Part shown: positions 4,282 through 34,838 of the stretch, piece by piece
Layout: every line of letters starts with the position of its first letter
How positions within the stretch are numbered: the stretch's first letter is position 1
NCBI GenBank assembly: GCA_947311535.1
Contig: CAMZLP010000190.1
Location: forward strand, 1-35,375
DNA from: an uncultured Deinococcota bacterium
GTDB lineage: Bacteria; Deinococcota; Deinococci; Deinococcales; Trueperaceae
Reading direction: 5' to 3'
DNA: 35,375 bases
The notes under the pieces: generated by a model
Seen by the model: the letters and a program-made list of their open reading frames with translations, nothing else
Database searches by the model: none
Told to the model about the DNA's origin: nothing
Position numbers and translations under genes: made by a program

Positions 4282-4968
4282 TTGAAAACAAAACTGATAA
4301 TCTTCGATATAGACGGCACACTAACCAACAGCCAAATAGAGCATCATGCTGCTTATTTGGCCGCCTTTGACAGCTTGGGCTATAAAACTTTAAATGAAGA
4401 TTTTAGCAGCTACCAGCATTACACCGACTCAGGCATATTTGCCGAAGCTTATTTTAAAGAATTTGGCAAAAAAGCCAATAAGCAAGCTATTAAAGATTTT
4501 GAGCAATTGCATTTAGAACAATTTAAAGATGTCTTAGAAATCTCAAAGCTAACAGAGGTTGCAGGTGCAAGGCAATTTTTGTTAGATTTAGCAGATAGCG
4601 AATGGGCAATTGGCTTTGCAACTGGTTCGTTTTTACCCTCGGCAATTGTAAAGTTAGATGAATGTAATATCCCCTATAAGCACGATGTTTTGGCAACTGC
4701 GTCAGAATTTTATAGCAGAAAAGAAATTGTTTTATCAGCCATTAACAAAGCCCAAGATTATTACCAAACAAAATTTGACGAAGTTGTGGCTTTTGGTGAT
4801 GGCCTATGGGATTTTAAAGCGGCTCAGGAGCTTGGGCTCGAGCTTATCGGAATAGGCTATGGTAAAAACGCTCAAATCTTAATTGATAAAGGTGTGACTT
4901 TGTTTGAAGACTTTTTAGAAAAAGAAGCTATTATCGAAAAAATAAGCGGCTTAAGAAAAATAAGCTAG
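4282..4968 (+). CDS. HAD-superfamily hydrolase (phosphatase-like)
   Basis: A 228-aa protein with all four HAD motifs: motif I FDIDGTLT (residues 8-15, two catalytic aspartates), motif II ATGSF (about 113), motif III lysine in YSRKEIV, and motif IV FGDGLWDFKAA (about 171-181). It has a helical cap between motifs I and II, as in phosphoglycolate phosphatase or beta-phosphoglucomutase relatives. The substrate cannot be told; a cytoplasmic phosphate-ester hydrolase is the safest statement. The start is a TTG, placed right before KLIIFDIDGT. It holds the first CTCGAG palindrome of the window (4837), and its codon use matches the chromosomal genes rather than the cassettes. Confidence 0.85.
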   Translation: MKTKLIIFDIDGTLTNSQIEHHAAYLAAFDSLGYKTLNEDFSSYQHYTDSGIFAEAYFKEFGKKANKQAIKDFEQLHLEQFKDVLEISKLTEVAGARQFLLDLADSEWAIGFATGSFLPSAIVKLDECNIPYKHDVLATASEFYSRKEIVLSAINKAQDYYQTKFDEVVAFGDGLWDFKAAQELGLELIGIGYGKNAQILIDKGVTLFEDFLEKEAIIEKISGLRKIS

Positions 4969-4975
4969 CATAAAA

Positions 4976-5332
4976 ATGATTGACTGGAGAGCAGTAACTA
5001 AAAACGGCGATTATCAGGAAAAAGACTGGTACTTTCCTGGCTTTCTTATTCAGGAATACTTGCTGCCCTTAGTTAATGTTGGCTTTAGCTATATTGATGA
5101 ATTTGGGGAAACAGAGTTTTTGCTTGAAGATTCTAAAAGAATATGAGGAAATATAAAATATCTGCTTGATTGTAAGTATTACAATCGAAAAGAAAGCATT
5201 AGTTATGATAGCTTTTTTAACGGCCTTGTTCTTATTAATACCCAAGAGATTATTGATTGTTTAATGAATTTAGATGCCGCATTTGACTATGCTATAAAAA
5301 ATACTGCTAAACTAGTATTTTATGGAGACTAG
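4976..5332 (+). pseudogene. Uncharacterised protein gene interrupted by an in-frame TGA
   Basis: The ATG at 4976 opens a frame of 118 sense codons plus a terminal TAG at 5330-5332, with one internal TGA at codon 57 (5144-5146). Both halves look like real protein (VGFSYIDEFGETEFLLED before; YNRKESISYDSFFNGLVLIN after) and share one frame, so a single base change such as CGA or TGG to TGA would explain it. TGA is the normal stop in neighbouring genes, which argues against recoding. I do not recognise the family. The 3' end overlaps the next gene by 11 bases, the spacing of a once-coupled operon. Confidence 0.6.
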
Positions 5333-5729
5333 CAATAGTATTGCTGATAAACACATCGTAATTTTTGATGGGGTTTGCAATTTTTGCAACGCTAGCGTCA
5401 ATTTTATTATTAGGCATGATAAGAAAGCTCTATTTAGCTTTACACCCCTACAATCAAAAATAGGTCAAGAACTAATAACTAAATACAATATTGATAGCAG
5501 TAAAACAGATAGCCTTATTTTAATAAAAAATGGCAAGGCATTTTTAAAAACAGATGCAGCTCTTGAACTAGCAAAAGCTTTAGCTGGCTTCTGGTTTTTA
5601 TTTTATGCTTTTAAAATTATGCCAAGAGTAATTAGGGATTATTTCTATGATTTATTTGCAGCTAAGCGCTATAAATTATTTGGCAAAAAAGATGTCTGTA
5701 TGATTCCTACAATTGAGCTTAGAAAATGA
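5322..5729 (+). CDS. DCC-family thiol-disulfide oxidoreductase-like protein (DUF393, YuxK type)
   Basis: A 135-aa protein with the family signature at the N-terminus: IVIFDGVCNFCNASVNFII, containing the DxxC and CxxC (C19 and C22) that name the DCC family. LFSFTPLQSKIGQELI and the TDSLILIKNGKAFLKTDAAL segment also fit. The C-terminal part has a hydrophobic stretch (ALAGFWFLFYAFKIMP) and the family's RDYFYDLFAAKRYKLFGKKD tail, here followed by C in KDVCMIP. The fold is thioredoxin-like and a redox role is inferred; no substrate is established. It overlaps the broken gene upstream. Confidence 0.85.
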   Translation: METSNSIADKHIVIFDGVCNFCNASVNFIIRHDKKALFSFTPLQSKIGQELITKYNIDSSKTDSLILIKNGKAFLKTDAALELAKALAGFWFLFYAFKIMPRVIRDYFYDLFAAKRYKLFGKKDVCMIPTIELRK

Positions 5730-5736
5730 GTTTTAA

Positions 5737-5862
5737 ATGACTAACGAGATTGAAGGAGTTTTTTATAATAAACCCAAGATGTCAGAAATTGACTGGCAGG
5801 GTGTTTTTGTAATTAGTAGGAGGATAGGCTCGAGCCTAGAAGGCTTATTGGAGGAAATATGA
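5737..5862 (+). CDS. Possible small protein, 41 aa
   Basis: An ATG-to-TGA frame starts seven bases after the DCC gene and overlaps the next gene by four bases (ATGA at 5859-5862). The peptide is acidic and soluble, with SEIDWQGVFVISRRIGSSL in the middle. Its spacing fits an operon member, but the length and lack of a recognised family leave it open whether it is a real gene or a remnant. It contains a perfect 14-bp palindrome of the CTCGAG family (5825-5838). Confidence 0.4.
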   Translation: MTNEIEGVFYNKPKMSEIDWQGVFVISRRIGSSLEGLLEEI

Positions 5863-6440: not shown

Positions 6441-6460
6441 GCAAGCCATAAAATACTTAA

Positions 6461-6865: not shown

Positions 6866-8449
6866 ATGGAGAAAAATTTTAATATAGCTTTTATCGACAT
6901 ACTACGTTTTATTTGGCGTGGTCTTTTAAATGCCTTGATTGCTGGAGCCGCTATAGCTCTACTTGTTTATGTAATAAGCTCAGCCCTACCGCCCACTTAT
7001 GAGGCGAGATCATCTATATTGGTAGCTAGTAATAGCCCAAACTTATCAGCTTTTGATGTTTTAAGCCCCCAAGCCGCCAGTATCGATGTAAGTGCTTACC
7101 GTACTGCTGTCCTTAGTGCAAGCAATATAGAAAGAGTAATGCAGGCACTAGGCAAAACAAATATTACTACAAAATCTATCGAAAGATTTCGCAAAAGTAT
7201 TAATATTCATTTAGAAGCTGGTGAGAACTCTAGTAACATAGATTTAATTGCTAGCGGAAAATCTCCGCAAGAGGCTCAGGCAAAGGCAAATTTATTAGCT
7301 CAGTCTTTGGTTATTTACGATAAAGAACGTTTTGCTGAAAGTTCTCGAAACCTTGCTACTTCTTTAGAGCATCAAATAGCTTTATTAGATAGCCAGATAG
7401 AGGCTTTAAGAAGCCAAGGAGCTAGCTTATCTCAAATACAAAATAGAATTGACAACCGCAATAGACAACAAGACCAACTCTCTTTGGCTCGAGCCCAAGT
7501 GAGTTCACCCACTGGCCTAGTCACTATTATGGAATCTGCATTATTGCCATATAAACCATCAGCTCCAAAACCACTTTTAAATGCAATTATCTCTTTTATC
7601 CTTGCTTCTATAATTAGCTATGGATTATTACACCTTTACGAATCAATTTCTAGCAATAGTTTAAATAAAGAAGCTGAAGATTTAGGATTGCCAGTTTTAG
7701 CAAGCTTTCCTAAAATTACTAGTCGTAAATTGCCAAAAGAAGCTACTAATTACTTACGGACAAACCTACTGCACGCTAGTGGTGAGCAAAAGCCAAAAGT
7801 TATATTAGTTACTAGCCCCAAAGATCATGAAGGTAAAACATCGGTAGCCCTAAGCTTGGCTGAGAGCTTTGTAAGGAACAATAACAACACCTTATTAGTA
7901 GATGCTAATTTACGTAATCCTAGCATTGCTAAAGCCTATAAACTAATGGCATCTAGATTAGGGCATACCTCTATTGAAACATGGTTGGGCAACCCCCGTG
8001 AAGCAAAAGGTGTAGTTAGAATGCCAGTAAATGATAAGAGCCTCTTTATTATTCCAAGTTTTGGTTCTAAACCAGAGCTTGCTGAACAACTTGGTAGTAA
8101 TCTAAAAGATGCTTTAGAAAGCTGGAAAAATCAATATGATATAATTATATTCGATTCGCCAGCCGTTTTAAAAGTGGCTGATTCGTTGGCAATTGCTCCT
8201 TATAGCACAGATACCATTTTGGTAGTAGATAAACAAAAGAGTGGACCAAGACAATTAAAATCCGCCATTAGTGTTTTACAAAGAGCAAACGCAAAACTAT
8301 CAGGAGTAATTTTAACCAACACAAAAACCCAAGATTTAGATATGGCTTATGCTGTTGATCTTGAAAACAATGCAAAACCAACAGGCTTAAAAATGCCAAA
8401 ATTTAATAATACAAAAACTGGAACAAAACCCAACAGAGGTAAAAAATGA
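6866..8449 (+). CDS. Wzz-type chain-length protein fused to CpsD/BY-kinase-like ATPase
   Basis: A 527-aa protein. The N-terminal Wzz domain has a membrane helix at about 21-41, an extracytoplasmic coiled-coil region (to about 215) and a second helix at about 236-258. The C-terminal P-loop domain has Walker A TSPKDHEGKTS (316-326), Walker A' LLVDANLRNPS (343-353) and Walker B IIIFDSP (426-432), as in bacterial tyrosine kinases that regulate polysaccharide length and export. Family members usually end in a tyrosine cluster that is autophosphorylated. Here the tail is rich in K, N and T with a single tyrosine near residue 495, so control by C-terminal phosphorylation is doubtful. It is the first gene of the operon and overlaps the dehydrogenase gene by four bases. 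Confidence 0.9.
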   Translation: MEKNFNIAFIDILRFIWRGLLNALIAGAAIALLVYVISSALPPTYEARSSILVASNSPNLSAFDVLSPQAASIDVSAYRTAVLSASNIERVMQALGKTNITTKSIERFRKSINIHLEAGENSSNIDLIASGKSPQEAQAKANLLAQSLVIYDKERFAESSRNLATSLEHQIALLDSQIEALRSQGASLSQIQNRIDNRNRQQDQLSLARAQVSSPTGLVTIMESALLPYKPSAPKPLLNAIISFILASIISYGLLHLYESISSNSLNKEAEDLGLPVLASFPKITSRKLPKEATNYLRTNLLHASGEQKPKVILVTSPKDHEGKTSVALSLAESFVRNNNNTLLVDANLRNPSIAKAYKLMASRLGHTSIETWLGNPREAKGVVRMPVNDKSLFIIPSFGSKPELAEQLGSNLKDALESWKNQYDIIIFDSPAVLKVADSLAIAPYSTDTILVVDKQKSGPRQLKSAISVLQRANAKLSGVILTNTKTQDLDMAYAVDLENNAKPTGLKMPKFNNTKTGTKPNRGKK

Positions 8450-9681
8450 AAGAACTAAGTGCAAATGTAATTGGTCTAGGCTATATTGGCCTACCTACCG
8501 CAGCAACATTAGCTAATGCAAATATTGATGTTACTGGTATTGATATTAATCAAAATATTGTAGATACTATAAACCAAGGTAATATCCATATCACGGAGCA
8601 TGGTTTAGATATTTTAGTAAGAGCCGCTGTGCAGCGCAAAAGATTAAAAGCATCTACCACCATTCAAATGGCAGATATCCATATTATTGCTGTACCAACA
8701 CCAATAACTAAAGATAAAAAAGCCGACCTTAGTTATGTAAAAGAAGCTGCTAAAACCATAGCAAGTGTAATTAAACCCGGTGACTTAGTAATTTTAGAAT
8801 CTACGGTTCCGCCTGCAACTTGTACAAATATAGTAGGGCCAATTATTAAAGAAATTACAGCCCTAGACCATAAGCAAGACTATTATTTAGCCCACTGCCC
8901 CGAGCGAGTAATTCCGGGTAAAATATTAAATGAGCTTATTAATAATGACCGTATAATTGGTGGTACAACTCCAGAAGCTACCCATAAAACTGCCGAATTA
9001 TATAAGTTATTTGTAAAGGGTAAGTTACTTTTAACTGACGCTAGTACCGCTGAAATGTGCAAATTGATGGAAAACACTTATCGTGACGTTAATATTGCAT
9101 TAGCCAACGAATTAGCTGATATTGCCGAGGATATTGATATCGATATAACTGAAGCAATTAAATTGGCCAATCATCACCCTAGGGTAAATATCCACTCACC
9201 TAGTATTGGTGTAGGTGGGCACTGCATACCAGTTGACCCTTGGTTTATTGTTGATAATGCTGCCGAGAAATCTGTGTTAATAAGAACTGCCCGTGAAATT
9301 AATGATGCCAGACCCAATCTTTTTGCTACTAAAATATTAGACTATGCTCGAGCCTATCCCAATAAGCAGCTTGCTTTGTTAGGCCTTAGTTATAAAGCTG
9401 ACGTAGATGATTTACGTGAATCACCAGCCATAGAAATAGTGCTGGATCTTGCTAAAAGATTAAAAACTAATTTGCTAATAGTTGAACCCAATATTTCAAA
9501 ATTACCTAAAGAATTAGAGCTTACTAATCTGGAATTAGTAGATTTATTTACAGCTATCAAAAAAGCTGACAAACTAATAATTTTAGTGCCACATAGTGAC
9601 TTTAAATCTGTTTCTAAAAATGACTCCATAGTTAATATTATGGACTTAGAGCCTGAACAAGAAAAAGAATTAAGCTTTTAA
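8446..9681 (+). CDS. UDP-sugar dehydrogenase, WecC/UDP-ManNAc dehydrogenase type
   Basis: A 411-aa enzyme of the UDP-glucose/GDP-mannose dehydrogenase family, oxidising a UDP-sugar to the uronate with two NAD+. The N-terminal Rossmann motif is VIGLGYIGLP (8-17); AVPTPI at 82-87 and ESTVPP at 118-123 follow; the central helix has AEMCKLMENTYRDVNIALANE with the catalytic lysine (K206); the nucleophile is C260 in GVGGHCIPVDPWF. The VPTPI and HCIPVDPWF signatures favour UDP-N-acetylmannosamine dehydrogenase (WecC) over UDP-glucose dehydrogenase, but that is inference. Its product would supply a HexNAc-uronic acid to the glycan. The short 411-aa length is normal for WecC. Confidence 0.88.
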   Translation: MKELSANVIGLGYIGLPTAATLANANIDVTGIDINQNIVDTINQGNIHITEHGLDILVRAAVQRKRLKASTTIQMADIHIIAVPTPITKDKKADLSYVKEAAKTIASVIKPGDLVILESTVPPATCTNIVGPIIKEITALDHKQDYYLAHCPERVIPGKILNELINNDRIIGGTTPEATHKTAELYKLFVKGKLLLTDASTAEMCKLMENTYRDVNIALANELADIAEDIDIDITEAIKLANHHPRVNIHSPSIGVGGHCIPVDPWFIVDNAAEKSVLIRTAREINDARPNLFATKILDYARAYPNKQLALLGLSYKADVDDLRESPAIEIVLDLAKRLKTNLLIVEPNISKLPKELELTNLELVDLFTAIKKADKLIILVPHSDFKSVSKNDSIVNIMDLEPEQEKELSF

Positions 9682-9692
9682 GGGAGAATATC

Positions 9693-11483
9693 TTGCGACC
9701 ATTTGTTAATGCCTTCAAATTATTAGATAAACAAGAAAGACGTCAAGTTTTTTGGCTAATGCCCGGTATTATCATTATGGCGGGCTTGCAAATTTTGGCC
9801 ATTGCTTTTATGTCACCATTTTTGAGCGTAATTAGTTCAAAAAATAGCATAAGCGAAAACACTATTTTAAACTTCTTATATACAAGTTTGAATTTTGAAA
9901 ATGAACGCAATTTCACTCTTTTTATTGGCTTTGCAGCTTTGTCATTGTTAATAATTAGCAATGCTTTTTCTATGCTTATTAGCTGGTTACTATTTCGTTT
10001 TGCATGGATGCGTAACCACTCTTTAAGTTATAAATTGCTCAATAACTATCTGCGCAAGCCCTATGTTTACTTTTTAAACCAAAACACTTCAGAATTAGAA
10101 AAAAACATGCTTTCAGAGGTTCAACAAGCTATCCAAGGTATGTTAATCCCTGGAATGCAAATGTTAGCAAATTCGGTAATTGCAATTTCAATTGTGGCTT
10201 TGTTAATAATTATAGACCCAATCTTAGCTTTAGGCATTGCAGTTACCCTTAGCCTTGCTTATGCAGCCGTATTTGGCATTGTCCAAAATAGATTAAAACG
10301 CATTGGGAAAGAACGTGTTTTGGCAAATAAACAACGCTATCAAGCAGCTAGCGAAGCCTTGGGTGGAGTAAAAGAAATAAAATTATTAGGCAAAGAAAAG
10401 TATTTTTTAGATAAATACACCGAGGCATCTCATATATATGCTCGGCATATGTCTGTTAGCGATACCCTAAGTTTTATCCCTAAATTTGCCATAGATACTA
10501 TTGCTTTTGGTGGGCTTTTAGGAATTATGTTATATATGTTAGCTATAAACCAATCAATTGACAAAATTATCCCAGTAGTTGGTTTATATGCCTTTGCTGG
10601 TTATAGGCTAATGCCCGCCTTACAACAAATATATAGGGCGCTATCCAAGGCAAGGTTTAATGAAGCCGCTGTTGATATTGTAGCCAAAGATTTAGACTCA
10701 GCCTATTTGGCTAAAGCCCAAGGCTCGAGCCTAACAAAATTAGAATTTAAAGATAGAATAGAGCTCAGAAATATTTCATTTAGCTACCCTGGCAGCAAAG
10801 AAAAACTACTAGCTAATCTAAACCTAAATATAAAAGCCAATAGCCAAGTGGCCTTTGTAGGTACTACTGGCTCTGGTAAAACAACTTTAGTTGATATTAT
10901 TTTGGGTTTACTACAACCAGCCAGCGGTGAGATTTTTATTGATGGGCTAAAACTAAATGATAAAAACCTAAGCTCTTGGCAAAAAAATATTGGCTATGTT
11001 CCACAGCATATCTACTTAAGTGATAGCAGTATTGCCGAGAATATAGCTTTTGGCATAAATAAAAAAGATATTGATTATGCTGCTGTTAAAAAAGCCGCCA
11101 AAATTGCCGACTTAGATATTTTTATAGAAAATCACTTAGAAAAAGCTTATGACACGATTGTTGGCGAACGAGGTGTTCGCTTAAGTGGTGGACAACGCCA
11201 GCGCATTGGTATTGCCAGAGCCTTGTACCATGATCCAGCAATATTAGTGTTAGACGAAGCCACAAGCGCACTTGATAACATTACCGAAGAAAGTGTCTTT
11301 AAAGCTATCAACAATGCCGCCAAAAGCAAAACTGTGATTATGATTGCTCATAGAATTTCTACTGTAAAGTCTAGCGATGAAATATTTGTAGTAGACCAAG
11401 GTGAAATTATTTCTAGTGGTAGTTTTGATAGCCTAATTGATAAGAGTGATAGCTTTAGAGCCTTAGCTCAAGCAGCTGGTTAA
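9693..11483 (+). CDS. ABC transporter, fused permease and ATPase (PglK/MsbA type)
   Basis: A 596-aa half-transporter likely to flip a lipid-linked glycan across the inner membrane. Residues 1-320 hold about six membrane helices (for example PGIIIMAGLQILAIAFMSPF, and 160-190). The ATPase domain has Walker A GTTGSGKTT (390-398), Q-loop VPQH (436-439), signature LSGGQRQR (497-504), Walker B ILVLDE (517-522) and the switch histidine in AHRIS. No Wzx flippase is encoded in the cluster, so this transporter is the probable export route, like PglK in N-glycosylation loci. The start is a TTG with GGGAG six bases upstream. It sits directly between the dehydrogenase and the cytidylyltransferase genes. 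Confidence 0.9.
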   Translation: MRPFVNAFKLLDKQERRQVFWLMPGIIIMAGLQILAIAFMSPFLSVISSKNSISENTILNFLYTSLNFENERNFTLFIGFAALSLLIISNAFSMLISWLLFRFAWMRNHSLSYKLLNNYLRKPYVYFLNQNTSELEKNMLSEVQQAIQGMLIPGMQMLANSVIAISIVALLIIIDPILALGIAVTLSLAYAAVFGIVQNRLKRIGKERVLANKQRYQAASEALGGVKEIKLLGKEKYFLDKYTEASHIYARHMSVSDTLSFIPKFAIDTIAFGGLLGIMLYMLAINQSIDKIIPVVGLYAFAGYRLMPALQQIYRALSKARFNEAAVDIVAKDLDSAYLAKAQGSSLTKLEFKDRIELRNISFSYPGSKEKLLANLNLNIKANSQVAFVGTTGSGKTTLVDIILGLLQPASGEIFIDGLKLNDKNLSSWQKNIGYVPQHIYLSDSSIAENIAFGINKKDIDYAAVKKAAKIADLDIFIENHLEKAYDTIVGERGVRLSGGQRQRIGIARALYHDPAILVLDEATSALDNITEESVFKAINNAAKSKTVIMIAHRISTVKSSDEIFVVDQGEIISSGSFDSLIDKSDSFRALAQAAG

Positions 11484-12171: not shown

Positions 12172-13040
12172 AGACCGCAGTTTATAGCAGCTTTTATCCG
12201 GCTATGCTTAAGTATGCTGACGAGTTTTTGTATTCACTGGCACAACAAAACGAGCAAGATTTTGACTTATGGATATCTTTGGACGGGCTCGAGCCTAATC
12301 AAATCAAGCTCCCTGATAAACTAAAGCCAATTTATTATCAAAACCAGCAAGCTAAAAACCCCATAGAAATCCGCAAACTAGCTCTAGCCGAAATATCAGC
12401 AAAATATGATGCAGTGGTCTTAGTTGACAGCGATGACATCTTATACCCAGAGCGAATTAAAGCTGCCAAAAAGATTTTAGAAAAATATGATGTTTATGCT
12501 TGTTCGTTAGATTTAATAGCTGAAAACGGCAAAGATTTAGGCCTAAAATTTGCTACTGAGAATCAAAAGGATTGGCTCGAGTTTTTAAGCAATAAAAACG
12601 TCTTTGGTTTTTCTAATACTGCTTATCGCACAAGTATTTTAAAAGATATTATTAATATCCCCAGCCACACAATAATGATGGACTGGTTAGTGGTTTTAAA
12701 AGCCTTAGTCAACAAAAACGCCCAGCTTTATTTTGACTCAGAAATTCATATGGCTTATCGGCAATATGAAAATAATACTAACAAGATAGTTAGCCCGCTC
12801 TCGGCTAAAAATATTAAACAAGCTACTAATTTACTTTTGAAACATCACTTAACTCTTAATGATGAATTGACTTGGCTCGAGCCTTTTCAGGGGCATTTTG
12901 CTAAAATAAAATTGTTTGCTAAATATATTGAAGAAGAGGCTAATTTGGCAAATTATTTAAAAGCACTCAACAACAAAAAAGAAGTTTTTTACTGGTATGA
13001 ACAAATAGCCTATCAAAAATTGGAGTATTTATGGAATTAG
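12168..13040 (+). CDS. Glycosyltransferase, family 2-like
   Basis: A 290-aa cytoplasmic protein with a GT-A type N-terminal domain: QNEQDFDLWISLDG at about 27-40 and VVLVDSDDILYPERI at about 84-98, where DSDD is the metal and nucleotide-sugar binding motif. The C-terminal half is helical and lacks membrane segments. Its donor is not predictable; its place between neuA and neuB makes transfer of a nonulosonic acid or a neighbouring sugar possible. It overlaps neuA by 4 bases and neuB by 10 bases, so the three are translationally coupled. Three CTCGAG palindromes lie inside it. Confidence 0.78.
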   Translation: MKTAVYSSFYPAMLKYADEFLYSLAQQNEQDFDLWISLDGLEPNQIKLPDKLKPIYYQNQQAKNPIEIRKLALAEISAKYDAVVLVDSDDILYPERIKAAKKILEKYDVYACSLDLIAENGKDLGLKFATENQKDWLEFLSNKNVFGFSNTAYRTSILKDIINIPSHTIMMDWLVVLKALVNKNAQLYFDSEIHMAYRQYENNTNKIVSPLSAKNIKQATNLLLKHHLTLNDELTWLEPFQGHFAKIKLFAKYIEEEANLANYLKALNNKKEVFYWYEQIAYQKLEYLWN

Positions 13041-19669: not shown

Positions 19670-19833
19670 TCAGTATCAATAGCCTTTAAAAACCCTCTCA
19701 TTTGTTCAATAGGCTTTATGGGTATTAGCTCGAGCCTATCCCCATAATTAATCATCTGTATATTTTGCCCAACTTTTATTCCCATAGATTTCCTAAGTTC
19801 TTTAGGAATAACTACCTGAAACTTTAGAGGCAC
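19636..19833 (-). CDS. AbrB/VapB-type antitoxin
   Basis: About 65 residues with the swapped-hairpin AbrB fold: LKFQVVIPKELRKSMGIKVGQNIQMI, then GDRLELIPIKPI. Such proteins bind their own promoter and neutralise a PIN toxin. The GTG at 19833 is 19 bases from the only good ribosome binding site (GAGGTGG), while two in-frame ATA codons (encoding IITVKVPLKF) lie 5-10 bases after it, so an ATA start is possible. The C-terminus was changed by a 19-bp duplication. Its toxin is a pseudogene, so it is an orphan antitoxin. Confidence 0.8.
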   Translation of the reverse strand: MPLKFQVVIPKELRKSMGIKVGQNIQMINYGDRLELIPIKPIEQMRGFLKAIDTEVVRDKDGGKG

Positions 19834-23188: not shown

Positions 23189-23486
23189 TTATAGTTTGCT
23201 AGCAGCAATTTCTATCCACAGCATTGTTATATGGGCTTTATTATTTTCATCCAAACTAAATTTCCGCAAATATTGCTCAGCTATTTTAGAGACAAAATCA
23301 TCACGGTAGTTTTCAGGAATTCTTTGGGTATTATGATAGCCATGTTCTTCTAAGCCAACCTTCTAAACCCGCTCTGCCCTTATGAAAAATAAGCATATCT
23401 TTGGGAATAAGCTCGAGCCTATCCCCCTTAATAATAGTTCTTGATATTCCTCTATACTATAAAATCTATACAGAAATTCAAAACCC
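23189..23486 (-). pseudogene. C-terminal relic of a class I SAM-dependent methyltransferase
   Basis: Three leftward frames together spell a methyltransferase tail: GFEFLYRFYSIEEYQELL (from 23486), then ELIPKDML and GRAGLEGWLRRTW in a second frame, then GYHNTQRIPENYRDDFVSKI and HITMLWIEIAASKL to the TAA at 23189-23191 in a third. This is the end of a trans-aconitate-methyltransferase-like protein with two frameshifts and no N-terminal SAM-binding half. It begins right at the dnaN stop, so the 5' part was deleted up to dnaN. Confidence 0.6.
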
Positions 23487-24584
23487 TTAAATTCTTAAAG
23501 GCACAACCATTGCCAAATATTTAGGATCATCAGTGCTTCTCAATACGCTTGGGCTTGGTCTATCAAGAGCAGAAAATGCTAGGCTAATTTCTCCACTTAT
23601 AGGTTTAAGAGCATCGATTAAATAATTAGCATTATAAGCTAAGGCGATTTCAGCTTCATCACCTTCTTGCATTACCGCTAATTCTTCTTGGGCTCGACCA
23701 TAGCCACCCTCAGCAGTTATTTGCAAATTTCCATCTTTTATAAATATTCCTATCCGATTATTACCAGTTTTGTCAGCCATAAGTGCTACTCGTTTTATCG
23801 AGCTAGCAAAACTATCAGCATCTAAGCTAACTTTTAACGGGAACTCACTAGGAATAATTTTTTCATAATCAGGGAATGTTCCATCCATCAATTTTAAATT
23901 TACTTTAAAAGCTCCATTTAAAATTGAAAGTTGATTGTTCTCTACTATCATTTTTACTTCGTCATCTGACAAAAGTTTTATAAGCTCATCAACAGTTCTA
24001 GCAGGTATGACAATATCTTCTTCTATACCCGTAGAACTATTGGCATCATAATAAGCAAGCCTAAAACCATCTGTTGCAATAGCTCTAGTATAATTTTGTT
24101 TCAGCTCGAGCTTAATCCCTCTAAAAATTGCCTGATACTCTGCTACCGCTGCTGCATATCGAACATGTGATAAAAGATTAGCCAAAACTCCACCATCAAT
24201 ACTGCTGGTATAAGTTTCTGGAAAGCTAATATTAGAACTTTCAATATCTTTGACAAGTTGTAATTTAGTTCCATAATTCCCCGAAGCAATACTCATTTCA
24301 TTTTCGCTAAATCCTAGCTGAACTAATTCACCTGGTAGAGATCTAATTATTTGACCAAAGACATTAGCTGGTACTGCAAATATTTTCTCTTCAGTAGTAT
24401 TTATATCTGCCGAGAGTTTTGCCTCTATATCTATTTCTAAATTACTTCCTCTTAAAATAATATTGTTATCTTTTATTTCTATAAATAATAAACTTAAACT
24501 AGGGTTACTAGTTCTATTAGGAATAATTCTTTCTATATGATTTAAGCTGTCTGATAAATATTTTTTTGGTATCTTAACTTCCAT
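23487..24584 (-). CDS. dnaN: DNA polymerase III beta subunit (sliding clamp)
   Basis: A 365-aa protein of normal length with three clamp repeats: EVKIPKKYLSDSLNHIERII and NPSLSLLFIEIKDNNIILRG in the first; IFRGIKLELKQNYTRAIATDGFRLAYY in the second; GNNRIGIFIKDGNLQITAEG in the third; the end DDPKYLAMVVPLRI is the family's usual C-terminus forming the partner-binding pocket. It tethers the replicative polymerase and other DNA enzymes to DNA. AAAGGAAG lies just before the ATG. It follows dnaA in the same direction, separated by the origin, the common dnaA-oriC-dnaN order. Confidence 0.97.
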   Translation of the reverse strand: MEVKIPKKYLSDSLNHIERIIPNRTSNPSLSLLFIEIKDNNIILRGSNLEIDIEAKLSADINTTEEKIFAVPANVFGQIIRSLPGELVQLGFSENEMSIASGNYGTKLQLVKDIESSNISFPETYTSSIDGGVLANLLSHVRYAAAVAEYQAIFRGIKLELKQNYTRAIATDGFRLAYYDANSSTGIEEDIVIPARTVDELIKLLSDDEVKMIVENNQLSILNGAFKVNLKLMDGTFPDYEKIIPSEFPLKVSLDADSFASSIKRVALMADKTGNNRIGIFIKDGNLQITAEGGYGRAQEELAVMQEGDEAEIALAYNANYLIDALKPISGEISLAFSALDRPSPSVLRSTDDPKYLAMVVPLRI

Positions 24585-26614: not shown

Positions 26615-28405
26615 ATGAGTGAATTTGATGTAATAATAGTTGGCGGTGGCCATGCAGGAATTGAAGCTGCTCAGGTAGCAGCTAAGTTTTCTAAAGTTGC
26701 CCTAATAATACCAAACCCAAATACCATAGGTATGATGCCTTGTAATCCTGCTATTGGTGGACCGGGTAAGTCTCAATTGGTTTATGAGTTGCATGCTTTA
26801 GGTGGGGTAATGGGTATTTTAGCAGATAAAACTGCTATTCATACTAGAACTCTTAATGCTAGTAAAGGGCCGGCTGTACAATCACTTCGGGTACAAAATG
26901 AGCGAGATGCTTATAGTGTAGAGGCTCGAGCCTTAATAGAATCAATCCCTAATATAAGCATTGTTCGTGCGGAAGTAGCAAGCTTGTTAGAAAAAGACAA
27001 AAAAATTAGAGGTATTTTAACTAGTGACGGTAGAACAGTCAAAGCTAAGTCAGTTGTTCTATGCACAGGCACTTTTTTGGCAGGAGTAGTTTGGTATGGT
27101 AAAGAAAAACGTGAAGCAGGTAGGCAGGGCGAGGCTCCTGCTAGATATTTATCTGATAGTTTAAGAAAAACAGGCCATAAACTAACTCGCTTTAAAACTG
27201 GCACCCCACCCAGAATTCGTTTTGATTCAGTAAATTTTGATGCTTTAGAAATGGTAGCTGCGGATAATCCAGCTAAATCATTTACTGGTAGAACAAATGC
27301 TAAGGCACATGCTAGTCCTACATGGCTTACACATACTACGTTAGATACTCATACTTTGATTGAAAATAATCTTCAACATTCTGCCATGTATGGTGGAGAA
27401 ATTGACAGCAAGGGCCCAAGGTACTGCCCCTCTATTGAAGATAAAATAGTTCGCTTTAAAGATAAAGACAGGCACTTACTATTTGTTGAACCAGATGGGC
27501 TCGAGACTTCCGAGGTTTATCTGCAAGGCTTTTCTAGCTCTTTACCACCATATTTACAAGATGAAATGATAAGAACTCTGCCGGGTTTTGAAAAGGCGGT
27601 TATTCAGCGTTATGCCTATGCAGTTGAATATGACATTTTGGATCCAACCCAGCTTTACACTACTATGATGTCTAAAAAACTTGCTGGTTTATTTTCGGCA
27701 GGTCAAATTAATGGAACTAGTGGATATGAAGAAGCAGCAGCCCAAGGTTTTATAGCTGGCTTAAATGCTGCAAATTTTGTAAATAATAAGGAATTAGTAA
27801 CAATTACTAGAGATAGAGCTTATTTTGGAGTACTGCTTGATGACCTTGTACGCTGGGGTATTGATGAACCTTATAGAATCCTGACTTCACGCAATGAATA
27901 CAGGCTTTTACACAGACAGGATAATGCTGAAGAAAGATTGTCTGAGCTGGCCTATCAATGGGGAACTATTGACGAAGCCAGATATAGATTAGTCAAAGAA
28001 AGCCTAGATAAGGTAAAAGCAGAAGTGGAACGCTTTGATAATAGCCGTTACAAAGGTGAATTGGCTTCTAAAATTTTACGCCGGCCAGAAGAGAAATACC
28101 AATCAGTTGTTTCTTATATTGGTGAATCGGAAATTATTTTGACAGAGTTAGAAAAAGAAAAAGTAGAAATACTAATTAAGTATAAAGCTTATATTGAAAG
28201 AAACCAAAGAGATTTAGAATCTAGAAAAAGATATGAAAATATGAAATTAACTGGAATTGATTACAAAAAGGTTAATAGTATGTCTAATGAAGGGCGAGAG
28301 ATGCTCGAGCATATACTCCCAGACACCCTTGGAGCTGCCCAGCGCTTGCGTGGAGTGAGGGATAGTGATATTACAGCATTGCTTGTTCACTTAAAATCCA
28401 GATAA
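26615..28405 (+). CDS. mnmG: tRNA uridine-5-carboxymethylaminomethyl modification enzyme MnmG (GidA)
   Basis: A 596-aa FAD protein that, with MnmE, modifies the wobble uridine of several tRNAs. The dinucleotide-binding motif is VIIVGGGHAGIEAA at the N-terminus; PCNPAIGGPGKSQLVYELHALGG, TGTFLAG, TGTPPRI and GQINGTSGYEEAAAQG are family signatures; the C-terminal domain ends RLRGVRDSDITALLVHL. The ATG at 26615 is used, with AGGGA upstream; a TTG one codon earlier is an alternative. mnmE, its partner gene, is not in this window, unlike the frequent mnmE-mnmG arrangement. It is followed by rsmG after one base. Confidence 0.97.
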   Translation: MSEFDVIIVGGGHAGIEAAQVAAKFSKVALIIPNPNTIGMMPCNPAIGGPGKSQLVYELHALGGVMGILADKTAIHTRTLNASKGPAVQSLRVQNERDAYSVEARALIESIPNISIVRAEVASLLEKDKKIRGILTSDGRTVKAKSVVLCTGTFLAGVVWYGKEKREAGRQGEAPARYLSDSLRKTGHKLTRFKTGTPPRIRFDSVNFDALEMVAADNPAKSFTGRTNAKAHASPTWLTHTTLDTHTLIENNLQHSAMYGGEIDSKGPRYCPSIEDKIVRFKDKDRHLLFVEPDGLETSEVYLQGFSSSLPPYLQDEMIRTLPGFEKAVIQRYAYAVEYDILDPTQLYTTMMSKKLAGLFSAGQINGTSGYEEAAAQGFIAGLNAANFVNNKELVTITRDRAYFGVLLDDLVRWGIDEPYRILTSRNEYRLLHRQDNAEERLSELAYQWGTIDEARYRLVKESLDKVKAEVERFDNSRYKGELASKILRRPEEKYQSVVSYIGESEIILTELEKEKVEILIKYKAYIERNQRDLESRKRYENMKLTGIDYKKVNSMSNEGREMLEHILPDTLGAAQRLRGVRDSDITALLVHLKSR

Positions 28406-28427: not shown

Positions 28428-29009
28428 GATGAAAAAATACTAAAATACAAGGATCTTTTGCATAAATACCACAGTACGCTGGATTTAATATCTAAAAAAG
28501 CTTTAGAAGATATCGATAGAAAAATTGATGATTCTTTGAAATACGCAAAATCAATAGATAAAATAAATTCAAATAATAAGACTATTTTGGATATTGGCTC
28601 TGGCAATGGTTTACCAGGAATAGTTATAGCTATTGCTCTCCCCCATTGGAATATAAGCTTAGTTGAGCGTAGAGGTCGGCGAGCTAGTTTTTTGAAGATT
28701 GTTAGTTCTCAGCTCAATTTATCAAATACCAGAGTTTATTTAGCAGATGTTAAAAACTTAAGGCTCGAGCCTCAAGCGGTGGTAACAGCTCAGGCAGTTG
28801 GGCAATTTAAAGATCTATATTGCTTAAGTAGACACCTACATAGCCAGATTATTACTCTAATATCACGTAAAGGTGAAAATTGGCAAGAAGAAACATTAGC
28901 CTTAAAACAATACCTCAAACTAAATATAGATGTTAAAAAGCCAATTAAACTCTCTAGCTATGGTAATCTGATTGCAATTGATTTGCAAGGAGGGATAGAG
29001 TGCCAATAA
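28407..29009 (+). CDS. rsmG: 16S rRNA (guanine-N7) methyltransferase RsmG
   Basis: A 200-aa SAM-dependent enzyme that methylates G527 of 16S rRNA. Motif I is ILDIGSGNGLPGIVIAIALP (about 61-80), followed by LVERRGRRASFLKIV (the E-x-x-x-R-R-x-x-F-L signature). VVTAQAVGQFKDLYCL stands where VTARAVAPL is usual. The protein is slightly shorter than most. The start codon lies inside parS, and the gene ends over the parA start, in the common mnmG-rsmG-parA-parB order. Confidence 0.93.
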   Translation: MFHVKHFDEKILKYKDLLHKYHSTLDLISKKALEDIDRKIDDSLKYAKSIDKINSNNKTILDIGSGNGLPGIVIAIALPHWNISLVERRGRRASFLKIVSSQLNLSNTRVYLADVKNLRLEPQAVVTAQAVGQFKDLYCLSRHLHSQIITLISRKGENWQEETLALKQYLKLNIDVKKPIKLSSYGNLIAIDLQGGIECQ

Positions 29010-29758: not shown

Positions 29759-30563
29759 TGGGCTTGGTAGAGGTTTAGATAGCTTACTGCCTAAAGTTGA
29801 AAACAGTTCAAATTCGATTAAAATTAAGGATTTAAAGGTTTCTAAATTTCAACCTAGAAAAGATTTTGATCCTGAAGCAATAGCAGAATTGGCAAAATCT
29901 ATTGCTGATAAGGGTGTTTTACAACCATTATTAGTAAGAAAGCTTGCTAATTCGTACGAAATTGTTGCTGGTGAAAGACGGTTTAGAGCTGCTAAACAAG
30001 CAGGATTAACAGAGATACCGGTAATTATTAGAGAACTCAGTGATCAAGAGACATTAGAAATTGCAATCATTGAGAATTTGCAAAGAGAAAACCTAAATGC
30101 AGTAGAAGAGGCTGAAGCATTCAAGCAGCTGCTTGATTTTGGCTTGAGCCAAGAAGAAGTTGCAAAATCTGTTGGTAAAAGCCGAAGTGCAGTTGCAAAC
30201 ACTCTCAGGCTTTTAAAACTACCTAGCCAAGCAAAAAACGCCCTTGTACAAAAAATGATTAGTCCGGGACATGCTCGAGCCATTTTGTCTAAGCCAGAAG
30301 AAGATAGGGAATGGGCTCTTAAACAAATACTTGATAAAGATTTAACGGTTAGACAAGCTGAGAAATTAGTAAAATCTGTGCTAGCTAATCAACGCGCAAA
30401 AAGTGCTTCTGATAATCGCTATGCTGAGCTTATAGAGGATTTAACCAAACATTTAGGTACTAAAGTCAAAATTTCAGGTGGAAGCAAAGGTAAATTGGAA
30501 TTATTCTTCTATTCTACTGAAGAATTAGAACGTTTATTAGAAACAATGGGTTATGAAGCTTAA
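29742..30563 (+). CDS. parB: Chromosome partitioning protein ParB (Spo0J)
   Basis: A 273-aa parS-binding CTPase. The N-terminus GKRSGLGRGLDSLLP binds ParA; VSKFQPRKDFD, GERRFRAAKQAG and IIENLQRENLN are the CTP-binding boxes; the helix-turn-helix is LSQEEVAKSVGKSRSAVANTLRLL (about 134-157); the C-terminal dimerisation domain begins near residue 225. The GTG start overlaps parA by 17 bases. One parS lies two genes upstream and another directly after the stop. Confidence 0.95.
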   Translation: MRGKRSGLGRGLDSLLPKVENSSNSIKIKDLKVSKFQPRKDFDPEAIAELAKSIADKGVLQPLLVRKLANSYEIVAGERRFRAAKQAGLTEIPVIIRELSDQETLEIAIIENLQRENLNAVEEAEAFKQLLDFGLSQEEVAKSVGKSRSAVANTLRLLKLPSQAKNALVQKMISPGHARAILSKPEEDREWALKQILDKDLTVRQAEKLVKSVLANQRAKSASDNRYAELIEDLTKHLGTKVKISGGSKGKLELFFYSTEELERLLETMGYEA

Positions 30564-30690: not shown

Positions 30691-31668
30691 ATGAAAAAAG
30701 CGGTAAGAGTTGCTGTTACAGGTGCAGCTGGTAATATTGGCTATGCACTATTATTTCGGATTGCATCTGGTGATATGCTTGGCAAAGACCAACCAGTAAT
30801 TTTACAGTTGCTTGAAATACCAGCTGCTATGAAAGCAGTTGAGGGTGTAATGATGGAGCTTAATGATGCTGCATTTCCATTATTGCAGGGCATTTCGGCA
30901 AGTGATAAAGCAGAAATTGCATTTGAAGATGTTGACTATGCCTTGTTGGTAGGCTCTCGTCCAAGAGGTCCAGGAATGGAACGCAAAGATTTGCTCGAGG
31001 CTAACGGAGCGATATTCACAGGCCAAGGCAAGGCTCTTAATGACCATGCCAGTAAAGATGTAAAGGTATTAGTAGTAGGTAATCCTGCAAATACTAATGC
31101 GCTTATTGCTATGAATAATGCCCCAGACTTAAAAAATGAACAATTTTCTGCCATGACTCGTTTAGATCATAATAGAGCCATGAGTCAAATTGCTAGTAAA
31201 ACTGGTAATTTAGTAAAAGATGTTTCTAATGTAGTAATTTGGGGCAATCACTCTGCTACTCAAGTGCCAGATTTATATAAAGCTACTGTAAACGGTAAAA
31301 AAGTATCTGAACAAGTTGATGAAGCATGGATAAAAGATTATTTTATACCAACTGTACAAAAACGTGGTGCAGCAATAATACAGGCTCGAGGCGCATCTAG
31401 CGCGGCTTCTGCTGCATCAGCGGCAGTTGATCAAATGCGGTCTTGGGTTTTAGGTACTGAAGGTGATGAATGGGTTAGCATGGCGATACCAAGCAGGGGA
31501 GACTATGGTATTGCAAAAGGAATAATCTATTCTTTTCCAGTGAGAATTAAAGCTGGCCGGGTTGAAGTTGTACAAGGTTTGGACAATAATGACTATATTA
31601 AAGAAAGAATGAAGCTGACAGAGCAAGAACTGTTAGAAGAACGAGAAACAGTCAAAGATTTGCTTTAA
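30691..31668 (+). CDS. mdh: Malate dehydrogenase
   Basis: A 325-aa NAD-dependent enzyme interconverting malate and oxaloacetate. It has the type-2 MDH signature: [23 protein letters not shown] (NAD-binding), [17 protein letters not shown] (substrate arginines near 90-97), [18 protein letters not shown] and the catalytic histidine H187 in [18 protein letters not shown] precedes the ATG, and a short hairpin GCTAGG-6-CCTAGC (30658-30675) lies just upstream of it. A strong terminator follows. It is a single-gene unit between the partition genes and PPK2. Confidence 0.95.
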
Positions 31669-32658: not shown

Positions 32659-32723
32659 GTTATATTTCACAAGGGGCTTTTGTAACTAAAATATTATGCT
32701 AATATGTTTTGGCGGAGAATGCT

Positions 32724-33167: not shown

Positions 33168-33216
33168 AAATAAAGCGAATAATTAGGAATAATAAAAGTT
33201 ATACTAAGCAATTAAG

Positions 33217-33906
33217 ATGTACTTAGATATTGAACAGTTAAATAATCAATTTGAAACAGCATCAAGCCTTGAGATTTTAGAATGGGCCAATAGTAATTTT
33301 GGCACAGGGCTTGTAGCGAGCTCTTCATTTCAAACCCAAAGTGTGGCTCTATTGCATATGATTTCTCAGCTTAGGCCTAAAATACCCGTAATATTTTTAG
33401 ATACGGGCTATCATTTCCCAGAAACACTTGCTTATCGCAATCAATTAGTCGAGCTTTTGGGCCTTGATATTATCAATGTAGAACCTAAAACAAAAACAAA
33501 TGCTTTATTAAGAGCAGGTCAGGAATTGCATAGAAGCAATCCAGACCTTTGTTGCCAAATTAATAAGGTTAAGCCCTTGGCTGACGCACTTACAGGCTAT
33601 CAAGCATTAATTAGCGGCATTAGGCGAGATCAAACTGCAAACCGTGCTGAGCTAAAATTTATTAGCAAAAAAGGTGCTCTTTACAAAATAAGCCCTATGT
33701 TAAATTGGACTCAAAAAATGGTCTGGCAGTATTTATACGACCACAAGTTACCCGAGCATCCACTATTAAAAGAAGGTTATTTAAGTGTGGGTTGCGCACC
33801 TTGTACAAGGGCCGTAAAAGCGGGTGAAGACCCAAGGGCAGGGCGTTGGGCTGATAGTGAGAAAACAGAATGTGGACTACATTTGGATATTGAGTCAAAA
33901 AAATGA
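33217..33906 (+). CDS. cysH: Adenylylsulfate/phosphoadenylylsulfate reductase (CysH family)
   Basis: A 229-aa enzyme of assimilatory sulfate reduction, reducing activated sulfate to sulfite with thioredoxin. The N-terminal PP-loop is GLVASSSFQTQSVALLHM; IFLDTGYHFPETL and ISGIRRDQTANRA follow. Cysteines 112-113 (DLCCQINK) and C193/C196 (GCAPCTR) are the four ligands of a [4Fe-4S] cluster, which favours APS reductase; C219 in EKTECGLH is the catalytic cysteine. No other sulfate-assimilation gene is in the window. It overlaps the epimerase gene by four bases. Confidence 0.93.
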   Translation: MYLDIEQLNNQFETASSLEILEWANSNFGTGLVASSSFQTQSVALLHMISQLRPKIPVIFLDTGYHFPETLAYRNQLVELLGLDIINVEPKTKTNALLRAGQELHRSNPDLCCQINKVKPLADALTGYQALISGIRRDQTANRAELKFISKKGALYKISPMLNWTQKMVWQYLYDHKLPEHPLLKEGYLSVGCAPCTRAVKAGEDPRAGRWADSEKTECGLHLDIESKK

Positions 33907-34838
33907 ATAGGCATATTATACTTTTAACGGGTGCTTGCGGCTATTTGGGTTCTGAACTAATTAAAGAGCTTATTGCGAACTACCCAAATAAAACCATTCG
34001 AATTCTTGATAATTTGCAAAACCAAGGTTATGAAGCCCTAATGAATTTAGCAAAAGCCGATATTGAATTTATTGAGGGAGATATTTTAGATACACAGACT
34101 GTGGAATATGTATTAGAAAATGTTGGACTTGTAATTCATATGGCGGCAATTGTTACTACACCTATGAATTTTGAACACCCAACTTGGGTGCATCAAATTA
34201 ATCATTGGGCAAGTACACAGCTTGCTGAGCTTTGTAGAGCAAATAATATTAAATTTATTTATACTAGCAGTACTGCTGTCTATGGCCCCGGAGGACCTTT
34301 TATAGAAACTAGTCAGTGCAAGCCGATAGGCCCTTATGCTAGCTCAAAAAGAAATGCCGAAAAAGATATCGAAAGAGCAGGAGAGCGAGGGCTCGAGTAT
34401 ATGATTTTGCGCTTGGGTAGCTTATTTGGTAAGGCTCCGGTAACTCGTTTTGATGGGGTGGCTAACCGTATGGCATATTTGGCAGGAGTAGGTAGAGCTC
34501 TGACGGTTTATGGCTCTGGTGAGCAAAGGCGGCCACTTGTTCATGTAAACGATGCAAGCTTAGCAATAATTGCCGCTATTGATAGCTTTGAAACGGGCAA
34601 AACTTACAACGTAGTAAGTGATAACCCCTCAGTTTTAGAAATAGTGAATATACTAAAAGCTATTAAACCTGATTTAAAGCTGAGATTTACGGAGCAAGAT
34701 GTAATGAACCACCTGACATTTAGTGTAAATTCATCTTTATTTCAGTTAAGCGGTTGGACTCCTAAAATAGATTTGCGTGATGGCTTAGGGGATTTGTTGG
34801 ATAGTTTTAAGAATGTTACATCAATTAAATTATCTTGA
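33903..34838 (+). CDS. NAD-dependent epimerase/dehydratase (extended SDR)
   Basis: A 311-aa enzyme with the extended SDR plan: NAD-binding TGACGYLGSELI (9-20), DILD (60-63), HMAAIV, YTSSTAVYGPG with the active-site serine/threonine, and the catalytic pair Y145 and K149 in YASSKRNAEKD. The C-terminal part (RRPLVHVNDASLAIIAA) fits sugar-nucleotide epimerases and dehydratases. The substrate is not predictable. It starts in the cysH stop codon (ATGA), so the two are co-transcribed, though no link to sulfur metabolism is evident. It contains the last CTCGAG site (34392). Confidence 0.88.
   Translation: MNRHIILLTGACGYLGSELIKELIANYPNKTIRILDNLQNQGYEALMNLAKADIEFIEGDILDTQTVEYVLENVGLVIHMAAIVTTPMNFEHPTWVHQINHWASTQLAELCRANNIKFIYTSSTAVYGPGGPFIETSQCKPIGPYASSKRNAEKDIERAGERGLEYMILRLGSLFGKAPVTRFDGVANRMAYLAGVGRALTVYGSGEQRRPLVHVNDASLAIIAAIDSFETGKTYNVVSDNPSVLEIVNILKAIKPDLKLRFTEQDVMNHLTFSVNSSLFQLSGWTPKIDLRDGLGDLLDSFKNVTSIKLS

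What the first reader, a model, noticed from the sequence alone, without database searches (positions are those of the whole stretch)
4837..34397. A HIP1-like, highly iterated palindrome GGCTCGAGCC marks this genome
CTCGAG occurs 24 times; at about 35% G+C and random order I would expect three or four in 35 kb, and well under one full GGCTCGAGCC where eight are seen. It appears in all three frames (LE, ARA, GSS) and on genes of unrelated function, including dnaN, mnmG, rsmG, parB and mdh. CTC and GAG are poor codons in such AT-rich genes, yet they come together here. The pattern is like HIP1 (GCGATCGC) of cyanobacteria, but with another sequence. It could be a methylation target, a motif for a DNA-organising protein, or the product of biased repair.
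Basis: partly seen in the sequence, partly recalled or inferred. Interest (0 to 1): 0.85.

Follow-up and report, generated by a model that had tools for sequence, protein, structure and literature searches.

The report
HIP1-like iterated palindrome in Deinococcota
A six-letter DNA palindrome, CTCGAG, is scattered through this bacterium and most of its phylum far more often than chance allows and is actively kept intact; in several related families its number tracks solitary DNA-methylating enzymes probably aimed at that same word, a parallel to the unexplained HIP1 palindrome of cyanobacteria.

Summary
Confirmed and larger than claimed. The window holds 24 CTCGAG (1.8 expected) and 8 GGCTCGAGCC; the 2.7 Mb genome holds 2,317 and 495 (mirror-image controls 396 and 0). 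CTCGAG is the only over-represented 6-bp palindrome. Its core is all-or-none (150 perfect decamers against 4 with a core mismatch in 848 kb), it lies in all reading frames and between genes, and in this lineage it sits in a weaker 20-bp dyad, GRWTAKG-CTCGAG-CMTAWYC. It is spread over the phylum (Deinococcota), reaching about 6 per kb in one family, where 68-75% of Leu-Glu pairs are written CTCGAG and Leu-Glu pairs themselves are doubled. In three same-genus comparisons CTCGAG is kept 1.4-2.7 times as often as hexamers of the same composition. In the window's family, enrichment follows an orphan gamma-class adenine methyltransferase (8 of 8 genera with it, 2 of 9 without). Four related genomes that lack it carry instead an orphan relative of the methyltransferase that, elsewhere, sits beside a broken XhoI (CTCGAG) restriction gene. 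Best reading: an independent HIP system, methylation-linked, kept exact by repair or selection. Weak points: the window's own assembly shows no such enzyme, the densest family has none identified, no methylation data.

The parts
4837..4842 (.). CTCGAG (GGCTCGAGCT), in HAD-like hydrolase ORF, frame CTC GAG
5827..5836 (.). full GGCTCGAGCC, between genes, in context GGATAGGCTCGAGCCTAG
7486..7495 (.). full GGCTCGAGCC, in Wzz/BY-kinase-like ORF (frame G GCT CGA GCC)
9347..9352 (.). CTCGAG (TGCTCGAGCC) in nucleotide-sugar dehydrogenase ORF
10722..10731 (.). full GGCTCGAGCC in ABC transporter ORF (third frame, GSS)
12286..12295 (.). full GGCTCGAGCC in glycosyltransferase-like ORF
12576..12581 (.). 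CTCGAG in glycosyltransferase-like ORF
12874..12883 (.). full GGCTCGAGCC in glycosyltransferase-like ORF
14954..14959 (.). CTCGAG in CBS/nucleotidyltransferase ORF
15100..15105 (.). CTCGAG in CBS/nucleotidyltransferase ORF, third frame
15575..15580 (.). CTCGAG in CBS/nucleotidyltransferase ORF
15719..15724 (.). CTCGAG where two ORFs overlap
19729..19734 (.). CTCGAG between genes, context AGCTCGAGCCTATCCC
20996..21015 (.). full GGCTCGAGCC (21001-21010) inside a perfect 20-bp palindrome GTACAGGCTCGAGCCTGTAC, at the 3' end of a minus-strand ORF
23412..23417 (.). CTCGAG between genes, context AGCTCGAGCCTATCCC
24105..24110 (.). CTCGAG in dnaN
26923..26932 (.). full GGCTCGAGCC in mnmG (ARA frame)
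27500..27505 (.). CTCGAG in mnmG
28304..28309 (.). CTCGAG (TGCTCGAGCA) in mnmG
28762..28771 (.). full GGCTCGAGCC in rsmG
30274..30279 (.). CTCGAG in parB
30994..30999 (.). CTCGAG in mdh
31385..31390 (.). CTCGAG in mdh, second frame
34392..34397 (.). CTCGAG in NAD-dependent epimerase-like ORF

Best explanation
CTCGAG is a highly iterated palindrome (HIP) of the phylum Deinococcota, functionally like, but independent of, HIP1 of cyanobacteria. Shown: the exact hexamer is enormously over-represented, strictly exact, and (in relatives) conserved beyond other words. Shown for two families: enrichment goes together with solitary gamma-class DNA adenine methyltransferases of two kinds (A1, A2). Inferred: both methylate CTCGAG (as CTCG-m6A-G). 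For A2 this rests on one member sitting directly before an XhoI-family restriction gene; for A1 it rests on the association with the motif and on A1 and A2 replacing each other. Inferred: the mark gives a genome-wide signal, most likely old/new strand discrimination for mismatch repair, and the signal itself favours gain and exact upkeep of sites, so that sites accumulate as a whole-genome drive rather than each having a private function. The extra dyad (GRWTAKG...CMTAWYC) in this lineage suggests that one further protein reads around the hexamer.
For: Excess and uniqueness. Exact core: with GG..CC kept, 150 perfect, 4 core mismatches, 267 end mismatches in 848 kb, the pattern Elhai reported for HIP1 (PMC4390886). 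All frames and between genes with the same flanking preference. Conservation in same-genus comparisons: 8 of 10 (80%) against 30% of same-composition hexamers, 87% against 63%, 55% against 20%. In the third comparison 24 of 85 single-mismatch words in one genome are CTCGAG in the other, and none is itself shared. A1 is in 9 of 35 Trueperaceae-like genomes and A2 in 1 more; the GGCTCGAGCC-to-mirror ratio is above 2 in 10 of 10 of these and in 2 of 25 without (Fisher 4e-7; by genus 8/8 against 2/9, p=0.002). A1 lies between the V-type ATPase operon and dnaG in several genera with no restriction gene at that place. A2 in G012 is followed by a frameshifted XhoI-family gene; A2 orphans occur in exactly the 4 of 18 g25 genomes that lack A1, and XhoI occurs in only 4 of 111 genomes. 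NPPF/NPPY motif IV in both, typical of adenine-N6 enzymes (family knowledge).
Against: The window's own genome has neither A1 nor A2 in a 92% complete assembly; its dnaG and its V-ATPase operon are both present without A1 beside them. The densest family (f5), g24 and g29 have no A1 or A2 (one f5 genome has a distant A2 relative), and no C5 or N4/N6 methyltransferase common to f5 was found. The genera are related, so the association counts are not independent; no tree was built. No methylation data. f5 density (one per 167 bp) is well beyond the about 1 per kb at which Elhai's repair model saturates.
Confidence: 0.6

Rival explanations
1. The sites are binding sites for an abundant DNA-organising (nucleoid or segregation) protein that reads a 20-bp dyad; methylation is secondary or absent.
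For: In this genome preferences extend symmetrically to 7 bp on each side of the core, GRWTAKG-CTCGAG-CMTAWYC, and are the same between genes and in each reading frame. Mean spacing about 1 kb with fewer close pairs than random (44 against 60 under 100 bp). The window's genome has no methyltransferase found.
Against: Core variants are not enriched at all, whereas a protein-binding motif usually shows graded near-cognate sites. f5, with the most sites, has almost no flanking preference. A binding protein does not explain the methyltransferase association or the A1/A2 exchange.
Confidence: 0.2
2. DNA uptake signal: natural transformation prefers DNA carrying CTCGAG, so sites accumulate by drive.
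For: One exact core with weaker flanks, density near 1 per kb here, all locations tolerated: all like known uptake sequences. Natural competence is known in Thermus and Deinococcus (general knowledge).
Against: Known uptake sequences are not palindromic; 6 per kb in f5 is far beyond them; near misses should be common under uptake drive but are not; no link to methyltransferases expected.
Confidence: 0.08
3. Methylation-independent biased mutation or gene conversion creates CTCGAG; the methyltransferases merely colonise genomes rich in sites.
For: f5 and g24 reach 23-83 times expectation without an identified common methyltransferase; amino acids are affected there (Leu-Glu observed/expected 2.4, Glu-Leu about 0.9), which fits a drive better than private selection on some 27,000 sites.
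Against: Does not predict loss of enrichment together with absence of A1 in Trueperaceae; no known mutational process has a 6-bp palindromic target of this strength.
Confidence: 0.1
4. Ordinary codon bias, protein constraint or chance.
For: G+C-rich members of the phylum favour CTC and GAG codons, and part of their CTCGAG count is explained so (G012: Leu-Glu as CTCGAG only 1.5 times codon expectation).
Against: The window's genome is 37% G+C with CTC in 4.8% of Leu codons, yet Leu-Glu pairs use CTCGAG 11 times, and the other two frames 5 and 13 times, expectation; sites also lie between genes.
Confidence: 0.01
5. Trace of an active XhoI-type restriction-modification system.
For: XhoI-family genes exist in 4 of 111 genomes.
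Against: Restriction lowers site counts; the three genomes of g23 with an intact-looking XhoI gene have fewer CTCGAG than their genus mates (1,390-1,947 against 3,640-4,718). No XhoI gene in the window's genome.
Confidence: 0.01

Closest known systems
HIP1 (GCGATCGC) and the alternate HIPs of cyanobacteria (Elhai 2015, PMC4390886)
   Same: One G+C-rich palindrome at tens to hundreds of times expectation, everywhere in the genome, about 1 per kb; hexamer core plus looser outer bases (here G/C next to the core in 84%); matching solitary methyltransferases in many genomes; occasional genomes with the palindrome but no such enzyme.
   Different: Different phylum and sequence; the linked enzymes are gamma-class with NPPF/NPPY (adenine), not C5-cytosine as in Elhai's GmeC model; a longer 20-bp dyad in this lineage; up to 6-7.7 hexamers per kb in relatives, above the 300-2,700 per Mb given for HIP1 octamers.
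Orphan regulatory methyltransferases (Dam, CcrM, CamA; orphan CTCGAG methyltransferase of Nocardia in Blow 2016, PMC4752239)
   Same: Chromosomal adenine-type methyltransferase at a conserved place without a restriction partner; CTCGAG is a known orphan target in Nocardia.
   Different: In Nocardia CTCGAG clusters at the replication origin; here it is iterated genome-wide and no site lies in the 2.8 kb spanning dnaA (24111-26924).
XhoI / PaeR7I restriction-modification (CTCGAG)
   Same: Same target; one A2 member is followed by an XhoI-family gene.
   Different: That gene is broken, and the other A1/A2 genomes have no XhoI gene; over-representation, not avoidance.
DNA uptake sequences (Haemophilus USS, Neisseria DUS)
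   Same: Exact core, weaker flanks, about one per kb, in coding and non-coding DNA.
   Different: Palindromic, no decaying near misses, far denser in relatives, tied to methyltransferases.

Membership tests
Highly iterated palindrome (HIP) class, as defined for cyanobacteria | Palindrome at tens to hundreds of times Markov expectation, genome-wide | tested here: met
   GCTCGAGC 92 times, GGCTCGAGCC about 550 times expectation (masked order-2 model, 605 kb); 495 decamers genome-wide, mirror 0
Highly iterated palindrome (HIP) class, as defined for cyanobacteria | Spread through genes of all kinds, all frames, and intergenic DNA | tested here: met
   464 in ORFs (frames 252/133/79), 43 between ORFs
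Highly iterated palindrome (HIP) class, as defined for cyanobacteria | Deviations fall at the outer bases, not the methyltransferase core | tested here: met
   150 perfect, 4 core variants, 267 end variants
Highly iterated palindrome (HIP) class, as defined for cyanobacteria | Methyltransferase of matching specificity in the same genome | tested here: inconclusive
   Met by inference in relatives (A1 or A2); not found in the window's own 92% assembly nor in f5; specificity inferred, not measured
Highly iterated palindrome (HIP) class, as defined for cyanobacteria | Sites conserved more than other words | tested here: met
   Three same-genus comparisons among relatives; the window's genome has no genus mate held
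Highly iterated palindrome (HIP) class, as defined for cyanobacteria | Occurs in cyanobacteria | tested here: not met
   Best Mdh matches are Thermus enzymes; G012 of the same family has the size of the Truepera radiovictrix chromosome (from memory): Deinococcota
Orphan DNA adenine methyltransferase (for A1) | Gamma-class domains and motifs, DNA adenine-N6 type | tested here: met
   PF02384, PF07669 and M.Eco57I C-terminal domain in all 9; nearest solved structure BseCI; NPPF or NPPY
Orphan DNA adenine methyltransferase (for A1) | No restriction partner, conserved chromosomal place | tested here: met
   Between V-ATPase operon and dnaG, no shared downstream gene of the kind seen in plasmid relatives; no XhoI in those genomes except the broken one of G012
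Orphan DNA adenine methyltransferase (for A1) | Methylates CTCGAG | not testable with these tools
   No methylation data; inferred from association and from exchange with A2
DNA uptake sequence | Raises uptake of DNA by competent cells | not testable with these tools
   Needs a transformation assay
Type II restriction-modification (XhoI) | XhoI-family endonuclease gene in the genome | tested here: not met
   None in the window's genome; 4 of 111 in the phylum

The most novel reading that the evidence does not exclude
A self-reinforcing, methylation-linked repair drive has written a single palindrome through a whole bacterial phylum, in one family so strongly (about 27,000 sites, 6 per kb) that protein sequences have been bent to it, and different lineages have kept it going by exchanging distantly related CTCGAG methyltransferases.
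Probability: 0.3. Interest if true: 0.92.

Novelty: new variant of a known kind. Interest (0 to 1): 0.8.

Why it matters
HIP1 has long been unexplained, partly because it could be studied in cyanobacteria only. A second, independent HIP in another phylum, with another sequence and apparently adenine instead of cytosine methylation, lets general rules be separated from accidents: it argues against any model that needs methylated cytosine, and makes the link between palindrome and methyltransferase testable by natural gain, loss and exchange (A1, A2, none) among close relatives, some of them cultured (Truepera, Meiothermus). The f5 genomes would be the densest iterated palindrome I know of and a rare case where a DNA word has changed the amino-acid make-up of a proteome.

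Tried and rejected
Cytosine-C5 methyltransferase (PF00145) as the partner: absent from motif-rich G011 and only a 109-aa fragment at a contig end in the window's genome. N4/N6 type (PF01555): none in the window's genome or G011; in f5 the members are not one orthologous group. Looking for A1 in the window's genome beside dnaG and beside the V-ATPase: both neighbourhoods present, other genes there. Identifying the organism with a genome-collection scan on MnmG: no close relative. Literature: no paper in the open library reports GGCTCGAGCC as a genome motif or CTCGAG excess in Deinococcota. A Xanthomonas methyltransferase considered as a CTCGAG enzyme turned out to target TACGAG. VSR-like repair of deaminated methylcytosine (would deplete TTCGAG and CTTGAG): TTCGAG mildly low in this genome (0.7) but raised about 2-fold in f5, so not supported as the general cause. 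Downstream genes of plasmid A1 relatives: no Pfam match, so they did not reveal the specificity of A1.
Full report
OBSERVATION. The genome (2,717,585 bases, 191 contigs, 92.4% complete) has 495 GGCTCGAGCC and none of the mirror-image control, and 2,317 CTCGAG against 396 mirror GAGCTC. On 605 kb of it (36.96% G+C) CTCGAG is 10 times, GCTCGAGC 60 times and GGCTCGAGCC 355 times an order-2 Markov expectation, and higher if the motif itself is masked from the model; no other 6-bp palindrome is in clear excess.

ANATOMY. Around CTCGAG the next base is G (C on the other side) in 84-85%, then G or T (K), A, T, A/T, A/G, G, giving a 20-bp dyad GRWTAKG-CTCGAG-CMTAWYC. The same preferences appear between genes and, more or less strongly, in each of the three reading frames, so they are not codon effects alone. 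The core is all-or-none: with GG..CC kept, 848 kb hold 150 perfect copies, 4 with a mismatch in the six core bases and 267 with a mismatch in the four end bases; core one-mismatch words sit at background. 464 of 507 sites are in ORFs (ORFs cover 82%), in frames 252/133/79. Spacing averages 1,038 bp with slightly fewer close pairs than random. Codon choice bends to it: Leu-Glu pairs are written CTCGAG 11 times, and the two other frames 5 and 13 times, more than codon usage predicts; Leu-Glu pairs themselves are not in excess over Glu-Leu here (1.27 against 1.23).

WHERE ELSE. The window's Mdh is closest to Thermus malate dehydrogenases (that 1bmd and 1iz9 are Thermus enzymes is my knowledge), and G012, in the same family, is one contig of 3,260,398 bases, the size I remember for Truepera radiovictrix; I take the family (f1) as Trueperaceae and the phylum as Deinococcota. 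Across 111 genomes of the phylum CTCGAG exceeds its mirror most in f5 (26,619-28,178 against 4-15 per 4.2-4.6 Mb genome, three genera) and in g24 of f2 (21,868 against 25; 14,690 against 2 in 1.9 Mb). A Thermus-like genus (g20) is near 1:1. With a masked Markov model on fetched stretches the excess is 23-75 times in f5, 83 in g24, 15 in this genome, 8 in G055, 2.7 in G012, and 0.7-1.8 in G025, G003, G007 and G019. In f5 many other G+C-rich 6-bp palindromes are depleted, some to zero, and GGCC is at about 0.01 in three of four genomes; CTCGAG is the striking exception, with almost no flanking preference in G028. There 68-75% of Leu-Glu pairs are CTCGAG and Leu-Glu is 2.4 times its expected frequency while Glu-Leu is 0.84-1.04: the DNA word has altered proteins. 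The decamer form is a dialect of part of f1 (G000, G009, G011, G008, g2).

MAINTENANCE. Same-genus comparisons in three families show CTCGAG kept in 80%, 87% and 55% of cases against 30%, 63% and 20% for other hexamers of the same composition (first comparison only 10 sites; Fisher p 0.002, 2e-11, 2e-26), while other palindromes are not favoured to that degree (36%, 55%, 11%). In f5, words one mismatch from CTCGAG in one genome are CTCGAG in the other in 24 of 85 cases and are never themselves shared. This is upkeep or recurrent restoration, not drift. Counts run over both directions of each pair and, in g25, over three pairwise comparisons, so they are not fully independent and the p-values are too small by an unknown factor.

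METHYLTRANSFERASES. Scans for methyltransferase families showed a 550-600 aa gamma-class protein (A1) that is the only clear candidate in motif-rich G011. A1 carries N6_Mtase, Eco57I and M.Eco57I C-terminal domains, NPPF or NPPY, and is nearest in solved structures to BseCI. A profile search finds A1 (E below 1e-160) in 9 f1 genomes and in 14 of 18 g25 genomes. In f1 it lies between the V-type ATPase operon and dnaG in G011, G001 and G016, and beside at least one of the two in G017, G005 and G021, with no restriction gene beside it; distant plasmid relatives do have a downstream gene in that position. A search for the XhoI endonuclease family found it in only four genomes. In G012 it is split by stops and follows, within 20 bases, a 597-aa gamma methyltransferase; that enzyme's relatives (A2, 40-52% identical) are solitary in G035, G051, G055 and G063, exactly the four g25 genomes lacking A1, in G049 and G050, and in G009, a motif-rich f1 genome lacking A1. 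In f1, all 10 genomes with A1 or A2 have a decamer-to-mirror ratio above 2, against 2 of 25 without (8 of 8 against 2 of 9 genera). The two exceptions are this genome and G002.

LIMITS. This genome's assembly contains no A1 or A2; dnaG (L054) and the V-ATPase operon (contig C114) are there with other genes next to them. Either the gene is in the missing 8%, or another enzyme serves, or the sites outlive the enzyme. f5, g24, g29 and f3 also lack A1 and A2; G036 has a 25-30% identical A2 relative, and three g23 genomes have an XhoI gene beside a different (PF01555) methyltransferase and fewer sites than their genus mates. The genera are related and no tree was built. Some A1 frames in g25 are listed with an in-frame stop, which I did not follow up. 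Specificity and methylation are inferred.

MECHANISM. Elhai proposed that methylated GmeC sites direct mismatch repair and that this ratchets HIP sites up to about one per kb. The exact core with loose ends, the upkeep, and the exchange of methyltransferases fit a methylation-linked process of that kind; the adenine-type enzymes and one site per 167 bp in f5 do not fit its details. I therefore commit to: methylated CTCGAG as a strand or self signal whose use in repair favours the exact word, probability about 0.6 for the methylation link and about 0.35 for repair as the driver.

NOVELTY. HIPs as a class are known in cyanobacteria; orphan CTCGAG methylation is known in Nocardia. I found no report of this palindrome in Deinococcota in the open-access library searched; subscription papers were not searchable. 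It is a new variant of a known kind, with a quantitatively extreme form in f5.

Noticed in passing
G028, G032, G036, G040 (f5) and G033 (g24); e.g. L089-L098: Near-total avoidance of many G+C-rich 6-bp palindromes and of GGCC, together with the extreme CTCGAG excess; suggests heavy restriction pressure (several of these genomes hold many methyltransferases).
   Followed up: partly
L207:3787-6200 (G012:C1 about 1,093,787-1,096,226): XhoI-type restriction-modification locus with the endonuclease gene broken by stops and frameshift while the methyltransferase is intact: apparent domestication of a restriction system into an orphan methyltransferase.
   Followed up: partly
L018:191-2890 (G000:C40): A type IIG-like restriction-methylase ORF of 899 aa whose middle reads like a REP-associated tyrosine transposase, continuous in frame (judged by eye); insertion or assembly join not resolved.
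   Followed up: no
window 34890-35081 (also 10709 and 24678): Near-duplicate blocks with GAGGCTTTAGCCTC and GGGGCTAAAGCCCC inverted repeats after the last gene; GGCTTTAGCC/GGCTAAAGCC occur 22 times in 848 kb, a small separate inverted-repeat family.
   Followed up: partly
window 24111-26924: No CTCGAG in 2.8 kb spanning dnaA and its flanks, unlike the CTCGAG cluster at the Nocardia origin; longer gaps exist elsewhere in the window, so possibly chance.
   Followed up: no
own genome, 605-848 kb samples: GATC is at 0.3-0.4 of expectation, and the GATC-containing 6-bp palindromes are low: a second, opposite word bias.
   Followed up: no
G025 (f2 g18): CTCGAG is below expectation (0.7) in a family whose genus g24 has one of the highest densities: a sharp gain or loss between genera.
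   Followed up: no
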